Source: a virus
Length of the DNA: 64,000 nucleotides
Strand: one strand, 5' to 3'
Virus record (IMG/VR): IMGVR_UViG_3300034198_015569
Location: 24,428 to 88,427 of that record
Shown: positions 12,817-45,063 of the stretch, in pieces
Layout of the letters: every line of letters begins with the position of its first letter
How positions within the stretch are numbered: position 1 is the first letter of the stretch
Program-made: the position numbers and the translations under genes
Notes under the pieces: generated by a model
The model's input: the letters and a program-made list of their open reading frames with translations, nothing else
Databases searched by the model: none
What the model was told of the DNA's origin: nothing

Positions 12817-12891
12817 GCGGTTGTAGCTCAATGGTAGAGCAGGGCCTTCTAAACGCCATGGTAGTGGGTTCGAATCCCACCTACCGCACCA
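12817..12891 (+). tRNA. tRNA, anticodon CUA by standard numbering (possible amber suppressor)
   Basis: Acceptor GCGGTTG/CTACCGC (one mismatch), D-arm GCTC-AATGGTA-GAGC, T-arm GTGGG-TTCGAAT-CCCAC, ACCA. Spacing from D- to T-stem is the usual 23 bases, which puts TTCTAAA in the anticodon loop and CTA at 34-36. Shifting by one base would read UCU (Arg), but stem pairing is then lost. The anticodon stem has a C-C mismatch next to the loop, as in tRNA-Leu(CAA) nearby. Confidence 0.6.
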
Positions 12892-25160: not shown

Positions 25161-25234
25161 GGGGTATGGGCTAGGACCCGGAAAATCCTTGCAAGATTTT
25201 AGCCTGATCGGGGCGGAACCGATATACTCCACCA
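25161..25234 (+). tRNA. tRNA-Ala(UGC) with odd T-loop
   Basis: Acceptor GGGGTAT/ATACTCC, anticodon arm AAATC-CTTGCAA-GATTT, T-stem ATCGG/CCGAT with loop GGCGGAA in place of TTCGAAN, ACCA. Confidence 0.75.
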
Positions 25235-25251
25235 TTTATTTTACCATTAAT

Positions 25252-25326
25252 GGGCTTTTAGTGCTAATGGGAACACACTGCTTTTGCAAAGCAGAATCGA
25301 CGGATCGTAACCGTCAAGGTCCACCA
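25252..25326 (+). tRNA. tRNA-Ala(UGC), second
   Basis: Acceptor GGGCTTT/AAGGTCC, anticodon arm CTGCT-TTTGCAA-AGCAG, T-arm GACGG-ATCGTAA-CCGTC with A at 54, ACCA. Confidence 0.8.
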
Positions 25327-25378
25327 ATTTTCTTATTGTGCGGCAATTGCCGAAAGTAGAGTCGTTCTCTACAATCCT

Positions 25379-25546
25379 AGAACGGATACTGCAATCTATC
25401 CCTAATAAGGAGGATTTCTTGAGCTTCGGCAAGACAGATATCTAGGGTGAGTTTTTGATATTTGAGCAATAAAGACTTGTTCTTGCGCTGCAAAAATCAA
25501 TTGTTTCTCTCCTCATTGAATGAATAAAAAACAAGAAAGCCGTTCT
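25379..25546 (+). ncRNA. Possible distant member of the TTTCAGCA RNA element family
   Basis: AGAACGG (25379-25385) is the reverse complement of CCGTTCT (25540-25546). As in the copies around the Ro60-like gene, the 3' strand is preceded by AAAG and followed by GTTAAA. After the 5' strand comes ATACTGCAA instead of TTTCAGCAA. The 150-base interior has no clear tRNA. The 5' strand can also pair with CGTTCT just upstream, so membership is uncertain. Confidence 0.4.
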
Positions 25547-25577
25547 GTTAAATTAAATTATGAACTTGTGAGGAAAA

Positions 25578-26078
25578 ATGATTCTTAAAGATTTCCTAGA
25601 AGCGATTGAATTTCAAGTAAGAGAATGTGTACCTTATCATTGGTCATGTTATGGTGAACGTTGTATGATCATGGATGGATATAATGAATATGGTGAAGCA
25701 TCTTGCGTTTATTCGCTAGAAACTTCACAAGTATTTGAAGTTTCTATCTCTGATAAGCTTGCTGATCGATATCAATACACATGGGTTGATCCTGATTATA
25801 AGGATGAATACGAAGCTGAAGCTAAGTCTCGTCATATTGAACCATATATGTGGCTTGATGGAGAAAAGTATTCTGTCACGGATTCTGAAGAAGATATTCT
25901 TGACAAGGTGACTGCAATTCTTAATAATAGAAGTTTCGATGAGACGGTAGTTATTACTTTAATAATGACACCAGAAGAAAAAATTCTTATTGAAACTGCG
26001 GCTGCAAATCTTGGTATCACGATTGATAAGTTTGTCGAGCGTGCTATTATGGAAGTTGCATACGAATTGGTAAATTAA
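25578..26078 (+). CDS. Hypothetical protein, 166 aa
   Basis: GTGAGGAAAA precedes ATG. Acidic protein; the last 50 residues (VVITLIMTPEEKILIETAAANLGITIDKFVERAIMEVA) resemble a ribbon-helix-helix DNA-binding unit, while the first two thirds are an unassigned mixed domain. If correct it could be an autoregulator, but this is a pattern impression only. Confidence 0.65.
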   Translation: MILKDFLEAIEFQVRECVPYHWSCYGERCMIMDGYNEYGEASCVYSLETSQVFEVSISDKLADRYQYTWVDPDYKDEYEAEAKSRHIEPYMWLDGEKYSVTDSEEDILDKVTAILNNRSFDETVVITLIMTPEEKILIETAAANLGITIDKFVERAIMEVAYELVN

Positions 26079-26182: not shown

Positions 26183-26259
26183 GCTCTACGACCCAGCTAG
26201 TGAAGGGGCTGTCCTGATAAGACAGTAGCCGCAAGGGGCGGAACCTTGGTGGAGCACCA
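26183..26259 (+). tRNA. tRNA-Ile(GAU), second, odd T-loop
   Basis: Acceptor GCTCTAC/GTGGAGC, D-stem CCC/GGG, anticodon arm CTGTC-CTGATAA-GACAG, T-stem CAAGG/CCTTG with loop GGCGGAA, ACCA. Confidence 0.8.
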
Positions 26260-26322
26260 TATATCATGATCCTGTGAATTATAATTTCTTAGATACAATC
26301 CTTAAATTGTGAGGTTTATATA

Positions 26323-26889
26323 ATGGAATTTTTTGTATTGGCTGGAATCACACTTTTTAATGTGTGGGGAGCCTTGATTTTACTTGCAGCTATTACAATC
26401 GCTTGTATACTTAGTTCCAATGAATATACATTGGCATCACTAGGAGTACTTTTAGTGGCCGCGACGGTTACGGCATTTTTCGGTCTAGCTCCTGTTTTTT
26501 CTTTTATCGTAAACAACCCATTGACTTTTGCGATTTGGGCTGTAATATATTTGGTAGTTGGAATCGTTTGGTCCATCTATAACTGGTGGGTTTTTGTAAA
26601 GAAAGTAAGAAATTACTATAATGAACAAAAAGCATCCTTAAGTAACAATCCTACGGAAAAAGATATTAAATTTGCTAGGGACCGAGTTGTAAATTATTTT
26701 GATTTGCTTTCTTTGCCTCCTAAGGCAATGGACCATAAATCACATATCATTTCCAGCATGGTATACTGGCCGATGTCGATGATTTGGTATTTACTTGCTG
26801 ATTTCCTAAAAGAAATTTTCACCAAGATTTTCAACTACTTCCGTAACCTTTATCAGAGTATTTCTGATAGTGTTTTTAAAGATATGTGA
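26323..26889 (+). CDS. Polytopic membrane protein, 188 aa
   Basis: Three hydrophobic segments in the first 95 residues (FVLAGITLFNVWGALILLAAITIA, LASLGVLLVAATVTAFFGL, LTFAIWAVIYLVVGIVWSIYNWW) and another near residue 150. TGTGAGG precedes ATG. It heads a block with a coiled-coil protein, a ClpB-like ATPase and another membrane protein, so it may be the membrane anchor of that complex. Confidence 0.75.
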   Translation: MEFFVLAGITLFNVWGALILLAAITIACILSSNEYTLASLGVLLVAATVTAFFGLAPVFSFIVNNPLTFAIWAVIYLVVGIVWSIYNWWVFVKKVRNYYNEQKASLSNNPTEKDIKFARDRVVNYFDLLSLPPKAMDHKSHIISSMVYWPMSMIWYLLADFLKEIFTKIFNYFRNLYQSISDSVFKDM

Positions 26890-36625: not shown

Positions 36626-36677
36626 AGAACGATTTCAGCACTTAAACGCTTGGTATGCAAAAAAGTCGTTCTGTTAA
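36626..36677 (+). ncRNA. TTTCAGCA RNA element, copy 1 (leader of the Ro60-like gene)
   Basis: AGAACGA (36626-36632) pairs with TCGTTCT (36666-36672). TTTCAGCA follows the 5' strand, AAAAAAG precedes the 3' strand, and GTTAA follows. The 25-base interior contains GC-TTGGTAT-GC, whose seven-base loop would read GGU (Thr) if an anticodon loop, but the stem is poor. It lies 18 bases before the Ro60-like start, so it may be both an RNA partner and an autoregulatory leader. Confidence 0.7.
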
Positions 36678-36694
36678 ACAAAAGGAATATTTAA

Positions 36695-38110
36695 ATGAAT
36701 ACTTTCGCACGTAATGTAGCATCAAACGTTGGTGCCTCTTCTCCTAAGATTGCTAAGACCCGCACTGAAAATGGTGCAGTTGCTTACACTTCATCCGGCA
36801 AGGCCAATCTTGATTTGTTTGCTGCAATTGGCGCAGCCCGCTCCCGTGATCTAACCAATGATTTCAAGGCGGCTCTTAATGAGAATCCTGAATTGGCAAC
36901 ACGTATCCTTCTATGGGCTCGTGATTGTCGTGGTGGTGCTGGTGAACGTTCAACCCCTCGCAAGCTTCTAGCTGTGCTTGAGACTGTAGACGTTGAACTA
37001 GCAGAGAAGGTGCTTCGTAAGCTACCAGAACTTGGCCGTTGGGATGACCTTCTAGATAGCGTTAAGACCCCTCGCCTTCGTGAGATTGGTTTCGGCCTAA
37101 TCCGTGACGCTTTGGCGGCTGGTAACGGTCTGTGCGCAAAGTGGATGCCACGTAAGGGTGATGAGGCTATCCAGCTTCGTTCATTCCTTGGTTGGTCTCC
37201 TAAGCGTTACCGTAAGACCCTGGTTTCACTAACCAAGGTTGTAGAACAGCAAATGTCTGCTAAGCAGTGGAGTGAGATTAAGTATCAATCCGTTCCTTCT
37301 GTTGCCATGGCACGCTCGATGAAGGCTTTCAGCCGTAACGATACTGTTCGTTTTGGCGAATACTTAAATAGAGTAAAAAAGGGCGAAACAAAGATTAATG
37401 CCTCTGTGGTATTCCCACATGACATTATTCGCTCTCTAAAGAGCGGACAAACTGCCGGTGCGGATGCTCAATGGAATGCATTGCCTGATTTTGTTGCATC
37501 GGACGAAAACTTTCTTCCAATTTGTGACGTATCAGGATCAATGAGTGTAGCTGTATCGGGTACGGTTTCTGCACTAGACGTTTGTCTTGGTCTTGGTCTG
37601 TATCTTTCAGAACGTGGTAAAGGTGCCTTTAAGGATATCTTTATGACTTTCTCTGCCCGCCCAACTCTTCAGAAGGTAAGTGGTTCACTAAGTGAACGTA
37701 TGAACCAAATGAATCGTGGTGCTTGGGATATGAACACGGACATGGAAGCTGCATTTAATGCTGTACTAGATCACGGTATTAAGTACAAAGTTCCGCAGGC
37801 AGATATGCCAACCACACTTATTGTCTTCTCCGATATGGAGTTTGATCAGTGTATTCGTAATGGAAATGATACCATCTATCGCAATATGCGTAAGCGTTTT
37901 GCTGATGCTGGTTACAATGTTCCTAAGGTTGTGTTTTGGAATCTTAATTCCAGAAATAAGCAGTTCCCTGTAACTGCAAAAGACCCAAACACTGCACTAG
38001 TGTCAGGCTTCAACCCAATTCTTGTTAAGAATCTTCTTGGCAAGGCGAATATCACTCCAGAACAAGTAATGCTTGACACTGTCATGGTAGAGCGTTATAA
38101 TCTAGATTGA
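36695..38110 (+). CDS. Ro60/Rsr-like RNA-binding protein (TROVE-type HEAT repeats + vWA)
   Basis: 471 aa. N-terminal TENGAVAYTSSGKANLDLFAAIGAARS, then LATRILLWARDCRGGAGERSTPRKLL and LPELGRWDDLLD are the helical-repeat signature of TROVE and the related DUF2828 proteins. The C-terminal 200 residues are a vWA domain with an intact MIDAS: ICDVSGSMS near residue 277, a Thr further on (NTDMEAAF) and FSDMEFD. Ro60-type rings bind Y RNAs on the outside and misfolded RNA ends in the pore. The gene is surrounded by seven short RNA elements with paired ends, which would be its natural RNA partners. GC-rich codons, so well expressed. Confidence 0.8.
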   Translation: MNTFARNVASNVGASSPKIAKTRTENGAVAYTSSGKANLDLFAAIGAARSRDLTNDFKAALNENPELATRILLWARDCRGGAGERSTPRKLLAVLETVDVELAEKVLRKLPELGRWDDLLDSVKTPRLREIGFGLIRDALAAGNGLCAKWMPRKGDEAIQLRSFLGWSPKRYRKTLVSLTKVVEQQMSAKQWSEIKYQSVPSVAMARSMKAFSRNDTVRFGEYLNRVKKGETKINASVVFPHDIIRSLKSGQTAGADAQWNALPDFVASDENFLPICDVSGSMSVAVSGTVSALDVCLGLGLYLSERGKGAFKDIFMTFSARPTLQKVSGSLSERMNQMNRGAWDMNTDMEAAFNAVLDHGIKYKVPQADMPTTLIVFSDMEFDQCIRNGNDTIYRNMRKRFADAGYNVPKVVFWNLNSRNKQFPVTAKDPNTALVSGFNPILVKNLLGKANITPEQVMLDTVMVERYNLD

Positions 38111-38145
38111 GAGTAGGGGATTCGTTCCCTACTTTCCTTAAGTTT

Positions 38146-38209
38146 AGGGCAATTTCAGCAAACATTTTAAATTTTTCTTTGTACGAAAAACTAAAAGTTG
38201 CCCTGTAAT
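38146..38209 (+). ncRNA. TTTCAGCA RNA element, copy 2
   Basis: AGGGCAA (38146-38152) pairs with TTGCCCT (38198-38204); TTTCAGCAA follows, AAAAG precedes, GTAATT ends it. The interior forms TTTTC-TTTGTAC-GAAAA, an anticodon-arm shape with T33 and UGU (Thr). The stem sequence differs from copy 1 while pairing is kept, which is covariation. Confidence 0.75.
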
Positions 38210-38211
38210 TA

Positions 38212-38279
38212 AGAACAATTTCAGCAAGTATTTAATACTTTTCCGCCAACAATTGGAAAATAAAACGTTGTTCTGTTAA
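38212..38279 (+). ncRNA. TTTCAGCA RNA element, copy 3
   Basis: AGAACAA (38212-38218) pairs with TTGTTCT (38268-38274), TTTCAGCA next to the 5' strand, GTTAA after. Interior hairpins AAGTAT/ATACTT and TTTTCC/GGAAAA; no clear anticodon arm. Directly follows copy 2 and precedes a small gene by 20 bases. Confidence 0.75.
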
Positions 38280-38293
38280 AATAAAGGATTATT

Positions 38294-38548
38294 ATGAATT
38301 TAGATGATGTTACTGCTGGTAATATGCGAACACTTTCCGAAAGATCGCTTCTTACTTTAAAAGAGGATGAATTTAGGAAAATTCGAAATCTTATTCATAA
38401 TGCGGCAAATTCTGGTGCATATTATATTCAATGTGATATAAAGTATCCAGAAACAGAGAATATGTTAAAAGATTTAGGTTTTAAGTTTAAAATTATGACC
38501 TTTAATAAAGATGTTACCACGTATAAAATTACATGGTGGATTGATTAA
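38294..38548 (+). CDS. Hypothetical protein, 84 aa, within the RNA-element array
   Basis: AAAGGATTATT precedes ATG. Mixed alpha/beta (EFRKIRNLIHNAANSGAYYIQCDIKYPETENMLKDLGFKFKI). Not recognised; the only protein gene between copies 3 and 4, so a role with the RNAs or the Ro60-like protein is worth testing. Confidence 0.75.
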   Translation: MNLDDVTAGNMRTLSERSLLTLKEDEFRKIRNLIHNAANSGAYYIQCDIKYPETENMLKDLGFKFKIMTFNKDVTTYKITWWID

Positions 38549-38554
38549 GAATTG

Positions 38555-38682
38555 AGAACCATTTCAGCAAATTTACTTTTATTTGCCTACGAAGCAAAAG
38601 GTGTCGGTTCGAGCCCGGCCCACCACACCAACTATGTGGTGGTAGTTTAATTGGATAGAACTTTATAAGGTGGTTCTGATAA
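38555..38682 (+). ncRNA. TTTCAGCA RNA element, copy 4, with permuted tRNA-Arg(ACG) body
   Basis: Closing stem AGAACCA (38555-38561) with TGGTTCT (38671-38677); TTTCAGCAA after the 5' strand. Interior in order: anticodon arm TTTGC-CTACGAA-GCAAA (38582-38598, ACG), variable AGGT, T-arm GTCGG-TTCGAGC-CCGGC, acceptor 3' strand CCACCAC (38620-38626), ACCA, five linker bases, acceptor 5' strand GTGGTGG (38636-38642), TA, D-arm GTTT-AATTGGATA-GAAC (38645-38661). Every tRNA part is present but the 3' half comes first, with the break between D-arm and anticodon arm. This is the tRNA-mimic layout reported for YrlA-type bacterial Y RNAs. Confidence 0.85.
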
Positions 38683-38695
38683 AAGATTAGAATTA

Positions 38696-38755
38696 AGAAC
38701 GATTTCAGCAACTTAAAAATTTCACTGTTAATGAAAACCAAAGTCGTTCTGATAA
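38696..38755 (+). ncRNA. TTTCAGCA RNA element, copy 5, anticodon-arm only
   Basis: AGAACGA (38696-38702) pairs with TCGTTCT (38744-38750); TTTCAGCAA and AAAG in place, GATAAA after. The interior is one hairpin TTTCA-CTGTTAA-TGAAA, exactly an anticodon arm with GUU (Asn); the same loop occurs in both tRNA-Asn genes of this window. Confidence 0.75.
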
Positions 38756-38760
38756 AATTT

Positions 38761-38875
38761 AGGATATTTTCAGCAATCTAAATTTCAAACAATGTAACAT
38801 GGGTTCGAATCCCATACATTCGAAAGAATGTTAGCCAAGTGGTAAGGCAATTGTCAAAAAAGTTATCCTGTTAAA
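38761..38875 (+). ncRNA. TTTCAGCA RNA element, copy 6, with permuted tRNA body (UUC-like)
   Basis: AGGATA with TATCCT (38761-38766, 38864-38869), TTTCAGCAA, then TTTCAA and ACAAT, GTAAC, T-arm ATGGG-TTCGAAT-CCCAT, ACATTC-GAAA-GAATGT (acceptor stem capped by a GNRA loop), TA, D-arm GCC-AAGTGGTAA-GGC, A, ATTGT C, then AAAAAAG. ATTGT pairs with ACAAT, so the permutation point lies in the anticodon loop; joined halves would read C-TTTCAA, anticodon UUC (Glu). No CCA. The GNRA cap argues for a tRNA mimic rather than a tRNA precursor in this copy. Confidence 0.85.
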
Positions 38876-38959
38876 ATTATGGGCAAGACCCGAAATTCTT
38901 ATGCGTCGGGAGATATTACAAGCGTGTTAATGGGGGCTATGTAATAATTAAATTTCCGG

Positions 38960-38987
38960 TTGACAAAAAATTAACTTGGTGTATAAA
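38960..38987 (+). promoter_or_regulatory. Promoter of the CAU tRNA pair
   Basis: TTGACA 38960-38965, 16 bases, TATAAA 38982-38987, 12 bases before the tRNA. Confidence 0.75.
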
Positions 38988-38998
38988 TAATAGAATAT

Positions 38999-39073
38999 TG
39001 CTGGCGGGAGGTTTAGAATCTCATTGGTCTCATAAACCAAAGAACTGGTGCAAATCCATGGCTTCAGCAACCA
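38999..39073 (+). tRNA. tRNA-like gene, anticodon CAU, degenerate
   Basis: Anticodon arm TTGGT-CTCATAA-ACCAA is perfect; D-stem GAG/CTC; acceptor TGCTGGC/TTCAGCA has a mismatch; T-stem only TGG/CCA around TGCAAAT; ACCA encoded. Confidence 0.65.
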
Positions 39074-39079
39074 ATTTAA

Positions 39080-39165
39080 TGCGGGGACAAGCCGGAGTGG
39101 CTAACTAGCCTCATAAGCTAGAGATTAATTTCTAATGGAATGTGCAACTCATTCCCCCGCAACCA
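39080..39165 (+). tRNA. tRNA with anticodon CAU, long variable region
   Basis: Acceptor TGCGGGG/CCCCGCA, D-stem AGCC/GGCT, anticodon arm CTAGC-CTCATAA-GCTAG, variable region of about 16 bases, T-arm GAATG-TGCAACT-CATTC, then A and CCA. Confidence 0.75.
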
Positions 39166-39336
39166 ACACGGTAAGGTTTACTATTCTTATCCCATATAAT
39201 GGTGTGATATTAATGGGTAAATCATATTGACGGCGAGGGCAAAGATCAAAGCGGGAAACCGGCACATTCGTTGTTCTATTTGAGGATAGACTTTGTGGGG
39301 GCCAGTCAATAATTATTTTAAAAGGTTAAACATTGA
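39166..39336 (+). other. Gene-free spacer
   Basis: 170 bases without an ORF. CTAT/ATAG and a possible CCGGCAC/GTGGGGGCC pairing are visible, but no tRNA or element copy. Possibly a degenerate tRNA tract before the HNH insert. Confidence 0.3.
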
Positions 39337-39831
39337 GTGTTTTGTTTAAATTGTAATAAAGAAACAAAGAATCCAAAATATTGTTGTAGATCATGTTCTG
39401 TATCTAAAAATAATTTAGGCGTACAAAGAAATAAACCAGTTGACAAAATATGTTTAAACTGTAGTAATAAAGTAAAACGAAATAAATCGAAATTTTGTTC
39501 TATGGAATGTTCCTTAAATTATAAGGCTATAGAAAAGAGAAGAGAAGTTTTAAGTAATCTTGAAAATGGAAAATATATTTCATTTAAGCAACTTAGAGCA
39601 CTTCTGTTAGATACATATAAAACTTGTCAAGAATGTAATATTGAACCTATATGGAATAATAAACCATTAAGTTTTCAAATAGATCATATTGACGGAAATA
39701 GTGATAATAATGACATTAAAAATTTACGGGTATTGTGTCCTAATTGTCATACACAAACTATAACATGGTGTTCAAGAAATATAAAAAACACCAAACGTAA
39801 TAAATATCTTAGAAGATATAAGGCTCCTTAG
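39337..39831 (+). CDS. HNH homing endonuclease ending inside tRNA-Val
   Basis: GTG start, 164 aa. Cys clusters CLNCNKETK, YCCRSCSVS, CLNCSNK, FCSMECS form zinc-finger-like modules, then TCQECNIEPIW, FQIDHIDGNSDNNDIKNLRVLCPNCHTQT is a full HNH core. The stop, TAG, lies in the acceptor end of tRNA-Val: gene and tRNA overlap by ten bases. TAG is uncommon as a stop here, and the CUA tRNA could extend the protein through the tRNA sequence. Confidence 0.85.
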   Translation: MFCLNCNKETKNPKYCCRSCSVSKNNLGVQRNKPVDKICLNCSNKVKRNKSKFCSMECSLNYKAIEKRREVLSNLENGKYISFKQLRALLLDTYKTCQECNIEPIWNNKPLSFQIDHIDGNSDNNDIKNLRVLCPNCHTQTITWCSRNIKNTKRNKYLRRYKAP

Positions 39832-39895
39832 TTAAAAAGGATAACATCTCTTTTACACGGAGAATTCGGCGGGGCGGTACCGTCAGGAGCTACCA
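39822..39895 (+). tRNA. tRNA-Val(UAC)
   Basis: Acceptor GGCTCCT/AGGAGCT, D-arm GTTA...TAAC, anticodon arm TCTCT-TTTACAC-GGAGA, T-stem GGCGG/CCGTC with loop GGCGGTA, ACCA. Third tRNA here with a GGCGG-type T-loop. Confidence 0.8.
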
Positions 39896-39910
39896 AAATT
39901 TAAGAACAAG

Positions 39911-39938
39911 AAAGCGGCCATAATGCCGCTTTTCTTTT
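39911..39938 (+). terminator. Rho-independent terminator
   Basis: AAAGCGGC and GCCGCTTT pair around CATAAT, followed by TCTTTT. Ends the tRNA/HNH unit. Confidence 0.8.
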
Positions 39939-39950
39939 AAGTGGAGTAAT

Positions 39951-40523
39951 ATGAATACACATAAAGATTACGAAGTTTTTAGATCGCCACTTTTTGTATA
40001 TAAATGTTTATATGATAATTATCCTAATTTAATTAAAGGTGATGTATTGGACCCATCCGCAGGTGATGGAAGAATGATTTTAGAATTAATAAACCGTGGG
40101 AATAATAATAAACACATGTTGTGTGATATTCGAGAAGAAGAAATTACTACATGGAAAAACATTCCTTCTTTTATAAATGCTGAATTTAAAATTGGCAACT
40201 TTCTTGAAATTGAATCATTTCGTAAATTTGACTCAATTATCACCAATCCACCATTTACACTCACTGTACCCTTTATTGAACATGGTATGAAGTGGTTAAA
40301 AGACAATGGTAATATAGCCATTCTTCAAAGATCAAATTGGTTAGGAACATATAAACGAAGTCAGTGGCTTAAACAGTCAGGACTTAGATACGTTTTGGTA
40401 ATCCCTAAACGTCCCATATGGGAGATTGATGGGCGGGATAATCGCTCTGATACATATGAATATTTCTGGTTTATTTTTCAAAAAGGTTATACCGGATTAC
40501 CTGAAGTTGATTGGCTCTTATAA
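39951..40523 (+). CDS. Adenine-specific DNA methyltransferase-like protein
   Basis: 190 aa. VLDPSAGDGRMILEL near residues 31-45 is the AdoMet-binding motif I; SIITNPPFTLTVPFIEHGMKWL holds the NPPF catalytic motif of N6-adenine (or related amino) methyltransferases. No separate target-recognition domain, so it may be a solitary enzyme protecting phage DNA or an RNA/protein methylase. GTGGAGTAAT before ATG. Confidence 0.8.
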   Translation: MNTHKDYEVFRSPLFVYKCLYDNYPNLIKGDVLDPSAGDGRMILELINRGNNNKHMLCDIREEEITTWKNIPSFINAEFKIGNFLEIESFRKFDSIITNPPFTLTVPFIEHGMKWLKDNGNIAILQRSNWLGTYKRSQWLKQSGLRYVLVIPKRPIWEIDGRDNRSDTYEYFWFIFQKGYTGLPEVDWLL

Positions 40524-40556
40524 TAATTTCTTTTTGTCAAGATAAATACTTTTAAA

Positions 40557-40715
40557 ATGAACATAATAAAAAATATTTTACTCGTAATTGGGCTATTGAT
40601 TTTTGGGATAGGATTGGTATTATTAGCCATCGTCGCTTTGGTTCCACTGATTCTAATTATTATTTCTCTAATAATAATGAAATTTGGAATTAGAGAGACA
40701 TGGGGAACGTTTTAA
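40557..40715 (+). CDS. Small membrane protein, 52 aa
   Basis: ATG 40557. Nearly all hydrophobic: ILLVIGLLIFGIGLVLLAIVAL then LILIIISLIIM, then GIRETWGTF. Two helices or one long hairpin. Ribosome site is weak. Unknown role. Confidence 0.6.
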   Translation: MNIIKNILLVIGLLIFGIGLVLLAIVALVPLILIIISLIIMKFGIRETWGTF

Positions 40716-40740
40716 TGTAAATGTGAGGGGAAGTTTTAGT

Positions 40741-41196
40741 ATGATTAAGCATAAGTATTTTGAAATTTCTAATGCTGACATTGACAATAACTTTGGTCTA
40801 TTTCGATCTTTGGCCCGCAATAATATCTACTCATCTGATGGAGTTTTTGAACAAACTTGGAATTATCCTAACGATACTATTCCAAATAAAGTTTATATGT
40901 CTGTAGCATTTATTGGCGAAGAGCCTCTTGCTGTTGCCATGGTAAACAAAAAGGTATATTATGGGTGGGAATTTACCAACTATGATATCAAGAAAACCGA
41001 TGGAATGTTTGGAGTTTTTGTGCATCCTCTCCATCGGCTACGTGGACTTGGCGAATATACTACGAATCATTTGTTTAAGAATTCTAACCTACGTCAAGTT
41101 TCTTTGGTGGGGGGAACTGCTGAAAGAATCGTTAAAAACGTAACTCCTGTAATGAAGTATATTCGGGCAGACGTTTTTAGCTCTATTTTGGCATAA
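40741..41196 (+). CDS. GNAT-like acetyltransferase
   Basis: GAGGGGAAG before ATG 40741 excludes the longer frame from 40684. 151 aa. GMFGVFVHPLHRLRGLGEYTTNHLF has the V-x-P-x-x-R-x-x-G-x-G acetyl-CoA loop of GNAT enzymes, with a preceding beta strand (AVAMVNKKVYYG). The fold fits; the acceptor (protein, tRNA or small molecule) is unknown. It ends shortly before element copy 7. Confidence 0.65.
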   Translation: MIKHKYFEISNADIDNNFGLFRSLARNNIYSSDGVFEQTWNYPNDTIPNKVYMSVAFIGEEPLAVAMVNKKVYYGWEFTNYDIKKTDGMFGVFVHPLHRLRGLGEYTTNHLFKNSNLRQVSLVGGTAERIVKNVTPVMKYIRADVFSSILA

Positions 41197-41243
41197 GATG
41201 AATAAAAAGAGTTGGTAGGGGAGTGTCCCCTACCCAAGAGTTT

Positions 41244-41371
41244 AGGACTATTTCAGCAAATAATAGCTTTGGAAAAACCTTGTGTCGGCGGTTCAAATCC
41301 GTCTCTCCCGCCCAATCGGGAGATAGCTCAGTCTGGTAGAGCAAAGGATAGCAAAAAAGTAGTCCTGTTAA
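41244..41371 (+). ncRNA. TTTCAGCA RNA element, copy 7, with permuted tRNA-Pro(UGG)-like body
   Basis: AGGACTA (41244-41250) pairs with TAGTCCT (41360-41366), TTTCAGCAA, AAAAAAG and GTTAA in place. Interior: CTTTGGAA (loop with UGG), CCTT, GTGTC, T-arm GGCGG-TTCAAAT-CCGTC, acceptor 3' TCTCCCG, CCCA, two bases, acceptor 5' CGGGAGA, TA, D-arm GCTC-AGTCTGGTA-GAGC, A, AAGG. AAGG pairs with CCTT, placing the break in the anticodon arm. C1-G72 pairing is typical of proline tRNA, agreeing with UGG. CCA is retained. Confidence 0.85.
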
Positions 41372-41712: not shown

Positions 41713-42825
41713 ATGTCTAAAAAGTTCAAGTTGGCCGTTTTCATTGGCCGTTTCCAGCCACTTCATAATGAGCACGTTCGCAATATTCAAACGTGTCTAG
41801 ATGTAGCCGACAAGGCTCTAATTCTTATTGGTGGCGCCAATCTTTCCCGTTCTCCTAAGAATCCTTTTACGTTCGCTGAACGTCGAGATATTATCTATAA
41901 TCATTTTTATCGTAAAATGTCTTTGGATGATATCCTTCCTTGTAATGAATATCAGTCTGATGATGATCGTTGGGCGGCAGAGGTTCAAAAGACCGTCTAT
42001 GGTCTTGGATACAAGGATGAAGATGTAACTCTTGTGGGTTGCAATAAGGATAATTCTTCATTCTATTTGAAGATGTTCCCTGGTTGGAAGGGAACCAATG
42101 TACCATTCCTTAAGAATATCAATGCGACTGATGTTCGTAATGATTTCTATAATTATGGTAACATTAATGTAAACCTTTCTCAGGAACTTCCTACTAGCAC
42201 CATTGATTTTCTTAATGATTTCTATTTCAACAAAAAGGAAATCTATGATTGGTTGGTGGATTGGCATAATTATGATCAGTCCATTGTGTGGATGAAGAAG
42301 CCCGTCGCTGATCTTGATACATTGATCAAGCTCTTCAATCAAAGTCAGAAGGCGGGGAAGGATTTTTATTTTACAAATTATCCAATCCAAACGCCTTGTG
42401 TTGATGCAGTTGTTACACAGTCGAATCATATTCTTTTGGTTGAAAGAAAGAACCATCCTGGCAAGGGGCTTTTGGCTCTTCCTGGCGGCCACCGAAATGA
42501 AGATGAGCGGGATATTGATGCTGCTGTTCGTGAGCTTCGGGAAGAGACTTGCATTGCGGATCGATACGGGGAAATTCCTCCTGGCAAGCTGAAGGATTTC
42601 ATTGTAAATCCTCAAGGTTTGAACGTGGATTGTCCCTGGCGTTCGGAAAGAGGCCGTGTGACCTCTACCGCATTTCATTTCAAGCTTCCTGATGTTACCA
42701 AGCTGTATAAGGTAACGGGAACTGATGATGCGGCAACTGCTAAGTGGTATCCTCTAGGTACTCTTAAGGATAATGATTTCTTTGAAGATCACAGAGATAT
42801 CATCCGTCAGATTTTGGGATTTTGA
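41713..42825 (+). CDS. nadM: NMN adenylyltransferase / Nudix hydrolase (bifunctional NadM)
   Basis: 370 aa. N-terminal FIGRFQPLHNEHVRNI (H-x-x-H of nucleotidyltransferases) and later SRSPKNPFTFAERRD-type loop show NMN adenylyltransferase. The C-terminal half is a Nudix hydrolase: LPGGHRNEDERD and AVRELREETCI near residues 256-280, the usual ADP-ribose pyrophosphatase. It makes NAD+ from NMN and ATP; with NadV it completes salvage from nicotinamide, which lets phages rebuild NAD+ after depletion by host defences. ATG 41713 follows AAAGGAG in a hairpin loop. Confidence 0.95.
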   Translation: MSKKFKLAVFIGRFQPLHNEHVRNIQTCLDVADKALILIGGANLSRSPKNPFTFAERRDIIYNHFYRKMSLDDILPCNEYQSDDDRWAAEVQKTVYGLGYKDEDVTLVGCNKDNSSFYLKMFPGWKGTNVPFLKNINATDVRNDFYNYGNINVNLSQELPTSTIDFLNDFYFNKKEIYDWLVDWHNYDQSIVWMKKPVADLDTLIKLFNQSQKAGKDFYFTNYPIQTPCVDAVVTQSNHILLVERKNHPGKGLLALPGGHRNEDERDIDAAVRELREETCIADRYGEIPPGKLKDFIVNPQGLNVDCPWRSERGRVTSTAFHFKLPDVTKLYKVTGTDDAATAKWYPLGTLKDNDFFEDHRDIIRQILGF

Positions 42826-43659: not shown

Positions 43660-45063
43660 ATGCGTAATAATATTCTACTATTTACTGATAGCTACAAATT
43701 TTCTCACTACAAGCAATATCCCGAAGGCACTAAGTTTGTTTCTTCATACATTGAGTCCCGTGGCGGCATGTATGATAAGACTTTGTTCTTTGGCCTTCAG
43801 ATGTTCTTGAAGGAATATTTTTCTAAGCCTTTTTCTCTTGAAGATATTGAAGAATATGATGAGCTTTGTAGAGCCCATGGTTTTGAGCCTAATACCAATG
43901 ATTGGCTCGCCATTTACAATAAGTATAACGGTTATCTGCCCGTTGAAATTCAGGCAGTGAAGGAAGGAACCGTTGTTGACGGAAAGAATGTTCTTGTTCA
44001 GATTAAGAACACGGACCCTAATTATCCTTGGCTTACGTCTTATCTTGAGACTTGTATTCTTCAAGCAATTTGGTATCCCGTGACGGTTGCAACTCGTTCT
44101 TGGACCATTAAGCAGAAGATCAAGGCGGCTCTTGAAAAGACTTCTGACAATGCAGCCGCAGTGCTCCCGTTCCGTCTACATGACTTTGGCGAACGTGGTG
44201 TTTCTTCTCGCGAATCGGCTGGTATTGGTGGGTGTGCTCACCTTGTCAACTTCATGGGAACCGACACGGTAGAAGGCTTGCGTTATGCCCGCCGCTACTA
44301 TGGAGAGATGATGGCAGGATATTCTATTCCTGCCACGGAGCACTCTGTGTCTACTTCCTATGGCCCTGGAAAGGGCGAATATGATTATGTTGATCGTATT
44401 CTTACCAATCTAGAGAATGCTCCTAATGGTAGCTTGCATGCCATTGTGGCGGATACGTATGACGTATACAATTTCTGTGAAAATATCCTTGGAGGCGATA
44501 CCTTCCGCGATCGTATTAAGGCTCTTGCAGAAAAGAATAAGGTTCTTGTGCCTCGCCCTGATAGTGGTGATCCTATACTTGTTCCTGTAAAGGTTATTGA
44601 AATCCTTGGAGAAAAGTTCGGTTATACCGTTAATTCTAAGGGATTCAAGGTTCTTCACCATGCCGTTCGTGTAATCCAGGGTGACGGTATGAATGACGAA
44701 TCTGTTGAGATTCTTTTCTGCAACTTGATTGTTAAGGGATGGTCTCTCGAAAACATCGCCTTCGGTATGGGTGGTAAGCTTCTTCAGGGACTTGACCGAG
44801 ATACTTTGAAGTTTGCAATGAAGTGTTCGGCAGTTAAGGGTGAGCATGATTATGACTGGCGCCCTGCTTTTAAAGACCCTATTACCGATAAGGGTAAGAA
44901 GTCTAAGAAGGGCCGCCTTGGTCTTGTAATGAAGGAAGGTAAGTATATTACTGTTTCTGAAGTTGAGGCAGGTAAGAACAATCTTCTAGAGGTTGTGTAT
45001 CGAGACGGTAAACTTCTGCGAAATCAGTCGTTCACGGAAATTCGAGCAATTTCTAATAGTTAA
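43660..45063 (+). CDS. nadV: Nicotinamide phosphoribosyltransferase
   Basis: 467 aa. LLFTDSYKFSHYKQYPEGT, SSYIESRGG, FGLQMFLKEYF, then FRLHDFGERGVSSRESAGIGG, FMGTDTVEGL, EHSVSTSYG, IVADTYDVYNF and RPDSGDP are the conserved NAMPT/NadV blocks including the active-site His and Asp. It joins nicotinamide and PRPP to NMN, feeding NadM. A TTG six bases upstream is possible, but ATG 43660 has the ribosome site. A strong terminator follows. Confidence 0.97.
   Translation: MRNNILLFTDSYKFSHYKQYPEGTKFVSSYIESRGGMYDKTLFFGLQMFLKEYFSKPFSLEDIEEYDELCRAHGFEPNTNDWLAIYNKYNGYLPVEIQAVKEGTVVDGKNVLVQIKNTDPNYPWLTSYLETCILQAIWYPVTVATRSWTIKQKIKAALEKTSDNAAAVLPFRLHDFGERGVSSRESAGIGGCAHLVNFMGTDTVEGLRYARRYYGEMMAGYSIPATEHSVSTSYGPGKGEYDYVDRILTNLENAPNGSLHAIVADTYDVYNFCENILGGDTFRDRIKALAEKNKVLVPRPDSGDPILVPVKVIEILGEKFGYTVNSKGFKVLHHAVRVIQGDGMNDESVEILFCNLIVKGWSLENIAFGMGGKLLQGLDRDTLKFAMKCSAVKGEHDYDWRPAFKDPITDKGKKSKKGRLGLVMKEGKYITVSEVEAGKNNLLEVVYRDGKLLRNQSFTEIRAISNS

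What the first reader, a model, noticed from the sequence alone, without database searches (positions are those of the whole stretch)
36626..41371. A Ro60-like gene embedded in a seven-copy family of new small RNAs
Seven short elements (36626, 38146, 38212, 38555, 38696, 38761, 41244) share one plan: a 7-base closing stem of changing sequence but kept pairing, TTTCAGCA directly inside the 5' strand, an A-rich AAG before the 3' strand and G(T/A)TAA or similar after it. Covariation across AGAACGA, AGGGCAA, AGAACAA, AGAACCA, AGGATA and AGGACTA argues for a functional RNA helix. They flank a TROVE/vWA protein. Ro60/Rsr proteins bind Y RNAs whose 5' and 3' ends pair, and bacterial YrlA RNAs carry a tRNA-like module. 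A phage with a whole repertoire of different Y-like RNAs is, to my knowledge, not described.
Basis: partly seen in the sequence, partly recalled or inferred. Interest (0 to 1): 0.95.

Follow-up and report, generated by a model that had tools for sequence, protein, structure and literature searches.

The report
Phage Ro60-like protein with seven Y-like RNAs
A phage gene for a ring-shaped RNA-binding protein related to human Ro60 sits inside a set of seven small-RNA genes that share one protein-docking end but carry different contents, three of them scrambled copies of transfer RNA; the same pairing recurs across many phages and bacteria and resembles an unexplained RNA class of social amoebae.

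Summary
All seven elements exist: TTTCAGCA occurs 8 times on the + strand of the window and 7 copies have the closing stem, against 0 of 5 on the other strand. The protein is not Pfam TROVE. It is DUF2828+DUF7788, but its predicted fold matches Ro60 and bacterial Rsr best. Three elements (38555, 38761, 41244) enclose circularly permuted tRNA modules and match Rfam YrlA below threshold.

The anchor (covarying stem plus UUNCAGCAA) lies beside DUF2828 genes in 66 of 80 metagenomic virus loci (111 on the gene strand, 15 on the other). It is also there in 39 of 80 bacterial loci (71 versus 1 within 1 kb) and in most of 22 named phage records from very different hosts. Inner modules are exchangeable. 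They include two topologies that, as far as I could read, are not reported for Y RNAs: acceptor-less tRNAs with an anticodon arm, and permuted tRNAs with one.

The Dictyostelium Class I RNA model (RF01414), an orphan class, retrieves the same elements.

Most likely these are Y-like RNAs of a second, DUF2828 branch of Ro60 proteins: a new variant of a known kind. Binding, expression and function are not shown.

The parts
36626..36672 (+). element 1 (47 nt): AGAACGA + TTTCAGCA ... AAAAAG + TCGTTCT + GTTAA; ends 22 nt before the start codon of the Ro60-like gene, with AAGGA between
   Evidence: model R1 4e-5
36695..38110 (+). Ro60-like protein, 471 aa: DUF2828 + DUF7788 (vWA with D278-x-S280-x-S282)
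   Evidence: fold match to Ro60 2i91 and Rsr 2nvo
38073..38101 (+). perfect sigma-70 promoter match TTGACA-17-TATAAT at the 3' end of the gene, upstream of the downstream array
   Evidence: consensus match only
38109..38136 (+). G+C-rich hairpin GTAGGGGATTCGTTCCCTAC before element 2 (terminator-like, or 5' cap of the array transcript)
38146..38204 (+). element 2 (59 nt), AGGGCAA/TTGCCCT, short inner part
   Evidence: RF01414 match
38212..38274 (+). element 3 (63 nt), AGAACAA/TTGTTCT, short inner part
38555..38677 (+). element 4 (123 nt), AGAACCA/TGGTTCT, enclosing a circularly permuted tRNA: anticodon arm 38582-38598 (TTTGC-CTACGAA-GCAAA, anticodon ACG), T arm 38603-38619, acceptor hairpin 38620-38642, D arm 38644-38662
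   Evidence: (YrlA 0.0035)
38696..38750 (+). element 5 (55 nt), AGAACGA/TCGTTCT, short inner part
   Evidence: R1 7e-13; RF01414 0.0013 in this genome
38761..38869 (+). element 6 (109 nt), AGGATA/TATCCT, enclosing T arm 38799-38815, acceptor hairpin 38816-38831, D arm 38834-38848 in permuted order
   Evidence: (YrlA 0.036)
41215..41235 (+). G+C-rich hairpin GGTAGGGGAGTGTCCCCTACC before element 7, like the one before element 2
   Evidence: sequence
41244..41366 (+). element 7 (123 nt), AGGACTA/TAGTCCT, enclosing T arm 41287-41303, acceptor hairpin 41304-41323, D arm 41326-41342 in permuted order
   Evidence: (YrlA 3.8e-6)

Best explanation
The locus encodes a Ro60-like ring protein of the DUF2828/DUF7788 branch and its own set of small RNA partners. 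Each RNA is closed by a 6-9 bp helix of free sequence followed inside by UUNCAGCAA. This anchor is the part that docks on the protein (inferred). The inside is an exchangeable effector module: a short A-rich loop, a permuted tRNA without anticodon arm (YrlA type), a permuted tRNA with anticodon arm, an acceptor-less tRNA with anticodon arm, or another fold. By analogy with Rsr/YrlA/PNPase, the protein would hold single-stranded RNA in its ring, the anchor would keep the partner RNA on its rim, and the tRNA-like module would either tether tRNA-recognising host enzymes or act as bait for tRNA-cutting defence nucleases while the phage takes over RNA metabolism (inferred). Shown by computation: the RNA family, its helix, its link to the gene, the tRNA modules and the Ro60 fold. 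Not shown: expression here, binding, and function.
For: Fold: AlphaFold2 model (pLDDT 83.5); the only PDB matches with E<=0.001 are Ro60 2i91 (E 5e-7, TM 0.67) and Rsr 2nvo (7e-7). Linkage in viruses: 80 loci found by the protein hold 111 strict elements on the gene strand, 15 on the other, 3-11 in shuffles, 90 of 111 within 500 b. Linkage in bacteria: 71 versus 1 within 1 kb. From RNA to gene: the pattern TTTAGGATNNTTNCAGCAA hits at least 119 stretches of viral DNA, the core-scrambled version 4; 31 of 48 tested pattern contigs encode DUF7788, against 682 of 50,697 phage records with a homologue. Controls T4, phiKZ, G and SPO1: no gene, best R1 E 0.046. tRNA modules: YrlA matches inside three elements; an anticodon arm precedes the T arm in 40 of 119 T-arm elements versus 0.98 in shuffles; compensatory changes in both topologies. 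PMC7790460 proposes that the YrlA tRNA domain may inhibit an anticodon nuclease.
Against: No RNA-seq or binding data for this phage. In Listeria phage CKA15 the most abundant non-coding region (26,236-26,727) is not one of these elements. YrlA scores (38.9, 28.7, 25.2) and RF01414 scores stay below the curated cut-offs. Elements were chosen for their stems, so the stem covariation is partly built in. 17 of 48 pattern contigs show no DUF7788, though contigs may be fragments. The mechanism rests on analogy with Rsr.
Confidence: 0.82

Rival explanations
1. They are ordinary YrlA Y RNAs with a divergent Ro60, already covered by the Chen 2014 catalogue; nothing new beyond one more phage.
For: Three elements match RF02553 at 3.8e-6 to 0.036. 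Mycobacteriophage Lumos and Enterococcus phage EFGrNG copies match at 1e-8 and 7e-11. Chen 2014 is cited for Y RNAs in mycobacteriophages (PMC12282133).
Against: No match reaches the YrlA cut-off in 23 records. The anchor is UUNCAGCAA, which the YrlA consensus lacks. Most elements (255 of 456) are short with no tRNA module. Many tRNA modules carry an anticodon arm or normal order, while YrlA mimics only D, T and acceptor arms (PMC8394870). Pfam TROVE is absent.
Confidence: 0.2
2. The elements are cis-acting binding sites in messenger RNA (leader and spacer hairpins) by which the protein regulates its own operon, not free RNAs.
For: An element lies 9-57 nt upstream of the start codon in 28 of 103 gene loci, and 22 nt upstream in the window. 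Elements are tandem on the gene strand.
Against: Arrays also lie downstream, and tens to hundreds of kb from the gene inside tRNA clusters (Xanthomonas phage XaC1, DLP6, huge phage LR756503). Whole tRNA-like folds inside the stems are hard to explain as operator sites. The leader copy may still autoregulate.
Confidence: 0.12
3. Decoy system: the anticodon-bearing modules are baits that, held on the Ro60-like ring, absorb host anticodon nucleases used in anti-phage defence.
For: An anticodon arm sits in 40 of 119 T-arm elements (0.98 expected), with variable anticodons on a conserved scaffold, UCU commonest in the acceptor-less class (A3, A4). The acceptor-less class cannot be charged. Phage tRNAs are known to escape such nucleases (PMC11455837). 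The competitive-inhibitor idea exists for YrlA (PMC7790460).
Against: Short elements carry no tRNA module. YrlA itself is not cut by the Salmonella nuclease (PMC7790460). No nuclease tested.
Confidence: 0.3
4. Mobile or recombinogenic repeats, or decayed tRNA genes, that happen to gather near the gene.
For: The region is tRNA-rich and holds an HNH endonuclease gene.
Against: Stems covary while the motif is fixed. Strand and position relative to the gene are kept across phages of Gram-positive and Gram-negative hosts and in bacteria. tRNA modules are permuted or acceptor-less but fold intact.
Confidence: 0.03

Closest known systems
Rsr/Ro60 with YrlA Y RNA (Rfam RF02553; Deinococcus, Salmonella)
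   Same: Ring-type protein with vWA domain; RNA whose ends pair in a basal stem; permuted T-acceptor-D tRNA module; genes side by side
   Different: Protein is DUF2828+DUF7788, not Pfam TROVE; anchor motif UUNCAGCAA; several RNAs per genome, mostly short; some modules have an anticodon arm or the normal arm order without acceptor stem; scores below the YrlA cut-off
Dictyostelid Class I RNAs (Rfam RF01414)
   Same: 42-65 nt, 5'-3' closing stem of variable sequence, 11-nt motif CCUUACAGCAA directly inside the 5' strand, CUGU at the 3' end, many copies, variable middle (PMC7919456); the model retrieves the phage elements
   Different: Known only from social amoebae, with their own DUSE promoter; known binder is the RRM protein Rnp1A; scores stay below the cut-off (best 37.1 against 41.5)
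Phage 'Ro-like RNA binding protein' (PHROG 850; mycobacteriophage cluster L, Felix O1-like, Listeria P100-like phages)
   Same: Same protein family, full-length matches in 680 phage records
   Different: RNA partners of this breadth and their anchor are not annotated in any record read here
Vertebrate Y RNAs (Rfam RF00019)
   Same: 5' and 3' ends form the Ro-binding stem
   Different: No sequence match in the window; no CAGCAA anchor or tRNA module known to me

Membership tests
Ro60/TROVE protein family | Ro60 ring plus vWA fold | tested here: met
   Foldseek best PDB matches 2i91 and 2nvo, the only two with E<=0.001, on a predicted model of pLDDT 83.5
Ro60/TROVE protein family | Pfam TROVE (PF05731) sequence domain | tested here: not met
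   No PF05731 match in the window protein or in 41 aligned members; vWA_Ro60 only at 0.02 in 5 of 41
Ro60/TROVE protein family | metal-binding D-x-S-x-S motif of the vWA domain | tested here: met
   D278, S280, S282 invariant in 41 sequences
Ro60/TROVE protein family | binds Y RNA and single-stranded RNA ends | not testable with these tools
   needs binding assays
DUF2828/DUF7788 | Pfam matches above cut-off | tested here: met
   DUF7788 2.3e-50, DUF2828 9.6e-33
YrlA Y RNA (RF02553) | stem joining 5' and 3' ends | tested here: met
   seven of seven copies
YrlA Y RNA (RF02553) | permuted T-acceptor-D tRNA module | tested here: met
   three of seven copies; the four short copies lack it
YrlA Y RNA (RF02553) | Rfam gathering score of 69 bits | tested here: not met
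   best 38.9 bits in the window, 47.8 in other phages
YrlA Y RNA (RF02553) | encoded beside a Ro60-type protein | tested here: met
Dictyostelid Class I RNA (RF01414) | stem + 11-nt motif + CUGU end, 42-65 nt | tested here: met
   four short copies; T3, C6, C9 and A10 of the motif match in all four, A11 in three (36626 has C there); the end is CUGU in three and CUGA in 38696
Dictyostelid Class I RNA (RF01414) | Rfam gathering score of 41.5 bits | tested here: not met
   best 24.3 bits in the window, 37.1 in a huge phage
Dictyostelid Class I RNA (RF01414) | partner protein of the DUF2828 family in Dictyostelium | not tested
   no eukaryote genome in the collections
tRNA | acceptor stem joining the 5' and 3' ends | tested here: not met
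   acceptor is an internal hairpin (permuted) or absent

The most novel reading that the evidence does not exclude
DUF2828/DUF7788 proteins are a second, ancient branch of Ro60-type RNA chaperones found in phages, bacteria and (by annotation and memory) plants and other eukaryotes. They have their own class of partner RNAs defined by a covarying end-helix plus UUNCAGCAA. The orphan Class I RNAs of social amoebae are the eukaryotic members of this class. In phages the anchor is used as a display stand for swapped-in tRNA cores with anticodon arms, probably baits or tethers for tRNA-targeting enzymes.
Probability: 0.5. Interest if true: 0.93.

Novelty: new variant of a known kind. Interest (0 to 1): 0.85.

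Why it matters
It gives a likely function and an RNA ligand to DUF2828/DUF7788, a family of unknown function present in 682 phage records here and in bacteria. It turns single phage Y RNAs into multi-copy sets with exchangeable inserts, including tRNA mimics with an anticodon arm that published YrlA lacks. It also offers a testable protein partner for the Class I RNAs of Dictyostelium, abundant RNAs linked to normal development that were reported as unique to that group. If the anticodon-bearing copies are baits, it would be a new form of phage counter-defence.

Tried and rejected
Pfam TROVE: no match, so I did not file the protein as TROVE. Rfam at gathering threshold: only tRNAs in the window. 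YrlA matches that span two neighbouring ordinary tRNAs (DLP6 112085, Aeh1 107791 and 108034, ValKK3 199654, LR756503 186575) are artefacts of adjacency and were discarded after reading the sequences. The idea that the most abundant ncRNA of Listeria phage CKA15 is an element was tested and failed. One Class I RNA match in phage T4 (E 0.0024) is probably chance, so single RF01414 hits near 1e-3 count little. Some descriptor hits on the minus strand or far from the gene are chance (15 of 126 strict hits lie on the minus strand). A record for T5 was not held. Papers by Sim and Wolin 2018, Sim 2020 and Chen 2014 were not held. Searching the 17 pattern contigs without DUF7788 for canonical TROVE found none.
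Full report
WHAT IS THERE. The window is part of an 88,427-base virus contig. Seven elements of one plan lie on the + strand at 36626, 38146, 38212, 38555, 38696, 38761 and 41244. TTTCAGCA occurs eight times on the + strand of the window and seven copies have a closing stem; it occurs five times on the - strand and none has one; a 7-bp stem in range occurs at 1.5% of random positions. The gene at 36695-38110 encodes 471 aa with DUF2828 and DUF7788 and PHROG 850 'RNA-binding protein'. It has no Pfam TROVE match, nor have 40 relatives.

THE PROTEIN. An alignment of 41 phage relatives (A2) gave an AlphaFold2 model of mean pLDDT 83.5. The only solved structures matched at E<=0.001 are Ro60 with misfolded RNA (2i91, E 5.4e-7, TM 0.67 of the query) and Deinococcus Rsr (2nvo, 7.2e-7). 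The D-x-S-x-S metal site of the vWA domain is invariant. So it has the Ro60 fold but lies outside the TROVE sequence family.

THE RNA FAMILY IS REAL AND TIED TO THE GENE. I scanned with a simple descriptor: a perfect stem of at least 7 bp next to NNNCAGCAA. In 80 IMG/VR loci found by the protein alone it gives 111 hits on the gene strand, 15 on the other and 3-11 in shuffles; 90 of 111 lie within 500 b of the gene, and 66 of 80 loci have one. In 80 bacterial genome loci found by the protein it gives 71 versus 1 within 1 kb, in 39 loci, among Lachnospiraceae, Oscillospiraceae, Chloroflexi, Akkermansia, Elusimicrobia and others; some of these contigs may be phage. Starting from the RNA, the pattern TTTAGGATNNTTNCAGCAA is found in at least 119 stretches of IMG/VR DNA (capped) and its core-scrambled twin in 4. 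Of 48 pattern contigs, 31 encode DUF7788, whereas 682 of 50,697 phage records hold a homologue. The 17 without it have no TROVE gene either; contigs may be fragments. A covariance model R1 from 69 short elements hits 20 of 23 phage records at E<=0.01. Training drew on many of these records; of the six records outside training, DLP6, phiM19 and the Fusobacterium phage are hit, and PG-2021_40, Lak-A2 and K571 are not. Phages T4, phiKZ, G and SPO1, which lack the gene, give nothing better than 0.046.

THE HELIX. On the 69 elements, 93% of stem cells pair, with 184 double changes against 51 in shuffles and a collapse when the partner is slid by one column. Elements were chosen for stems, so this shows how freely the sequence varies rather than proving the helix; the strand, distance and scrambled-pattern controls above carry the proof.

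INNER MODULES. Of 456 unique descriptor hits, 255 are short. Of the rest, 119 contain a tRNA T arm. Three arrangements occur. (a) T arm, acceptor hairpin, D arm, the YrlA order, without anticodon arm (47). (b) Anticodon arm, T arm, acceptor hairpin, D arm: a full tRNA opened between D and anticodon arms (18; alignment A4; 20 of 28 pairs with compensatory changes, 113 double changes versus 34 in shuffles). (c) D arm, anticodon arm, T arm with no acceptor stem, the Y stem taking its place (21; alignment A3; 16 of 20 pairs compensatory, 68 double changes versus 17.5). An anticodon arm precedes the T arm in 40 of 119, against 0.98 in shuffles. Classes are regular-expression based, so counts are approximate; a few members of each class are probably misassigned. 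In the window, 38555 is of type b with anticodon ACG, and 38761 and 41244 look like type a. Published YrlA mimics D, T and acceptor arms only (PMC8394870).

THE AMOEBA LINK. Class I RNAs of social amoebae are 42-65 nt, closed by a variable stem, with CCUUACAGCAA inside the 5' strand and CUGU at the 3' end, and were reported as unique to dictyostelids (PMC7919456). Their Rfam model alone, run on whole phage records, has its best match in a 735-kb phage at 5.9e-6 (37.1 bits, cut-off 41.5). By my reading about 27 of the 29 matches at E<=0.1 are elements of this family, with 2.3 chance matches expected. One control match in T4 reaches 0.0024, so weak single hits are not proof. Some phage and bacterial copies read AAG-stem-UUACAGCAA...stem-CUUGU (Staphylococcus phage SEP9, Clostridia). 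Whether Dictyostelium has a DUF2828 protein was not testable here; the phage Aeh1 copy is annotated as similar to an Arabidopsis protein, so eukaryotic relatives exist.

EXPRESSION. A 12-of-12 sigma-70 promoter match ends at 38101, at the 3' end of the gene and just before the array 38146-38869. In 28 of 103 gene loci an element lies 9-57 nt before the start codon, so a leader copy may autoregulate. In Listeria phage CKA15 the homologous protein is found in purified virions (20 peptides, 57% coverage) and three abundant unannotated RNAs lie within 2 kb upstream (PMC12282133). The strongest (26,236-26,727) is not an element. The three elements lie in the unannotated gap 25,216-25,610 next to the gene. 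Whether that gap is one of the other two abundant regions is not stated.

MECHANISM (mostly inferred). Rsr uses the basal stem of YrlA for binding and the tRNA-like domain to tether PNPase (PMC8394870). The constant anchor and exchangeable insert here fit the same logic: anchor to the ring, insert as effector. Neighbouring genes in relatives (RtcB, RNA ligase, NAD salvage, tRNAs) suggest RNA repair and defence conflict. The anticodon-bearing inserts make a bait for anticodon nucleases plausible; a competitive-inhibitor role was proposed for YrlA (PMC7790460), and phage tRNAs are known to escape such nucleases (PMC11455837).

VERDICT. New variant of a known kind. The Y RNA principle and phage Y RNAs were known. 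The DUF2828 branch with its own anchor, the multi-copy modular sets, the anticodon-bearing topologies and the amoeba resemblance are, as far as I could check, not described.

Noticed in passing
L033:6820-7002, L083:4069-4201, L029:4627-4794, L097:4648-4815: Some elements hold large structured inserts (about 100-150 nt) that are not tRNA-like and recur between related phages; unknown RNA domains.
   Followed up: no
L257 (CKA15 OR088597 26,236-26,727): The most abundant RNA of Listeria phage CKA15 (about 67% of phage transcripts late) is a structured non-coding region that is not a member of this family; its nature is open.
   Followed up: partly
PMC12282133, protein CKA15_055: The Ro60-like protein was detected in purified virions, so it may be injected with the genome.
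   Followed up: no
window 38112-38131 and 41215-41235: Two near-identical G+C-rich hairpins (GTAGGGGA...TCCC(C)TAC) stand just before element 2 and element 7.
   Followed up: no
window 39822-39892 and 39337-39831: A tRNA (42 bits) missed by ARAGORN overlaps the end of an HNH endonuclease gene inside the element region; two further weak CAT-anticodon tRNA-like stretches lie at about 39002-39166.
   Followed up: no
window 12817-12891: ARAGORN calls a CTA-anticodon tRNA (Pyl or amber suppressor) among 17 tRNAs.
   Followed up: no
window 41713-42822 and 43660-45060: NAD salvage pair (NMN adenylyltransferase-Nudix and nicotinamide phosphoribosyltransferase) next to the locus, also next to it in phage DLP6.
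   Followed up: partly
L007:9377-12642 (Escherichia phage EC6): A 3.2-kb unannotated gap beside the gene in a Felix O1-like phage holds several elements.
   Followed up: partly
A4 rows (L042, L125, L133, L150, L153, L155, L167, L188, L193, L233, L235): Anticodon varies (GTA, GGA, GAA, TAG, GCA) on an otherwise conserved anticodon-stem scaffold, as if under diversifying selection.
   Followed up: no
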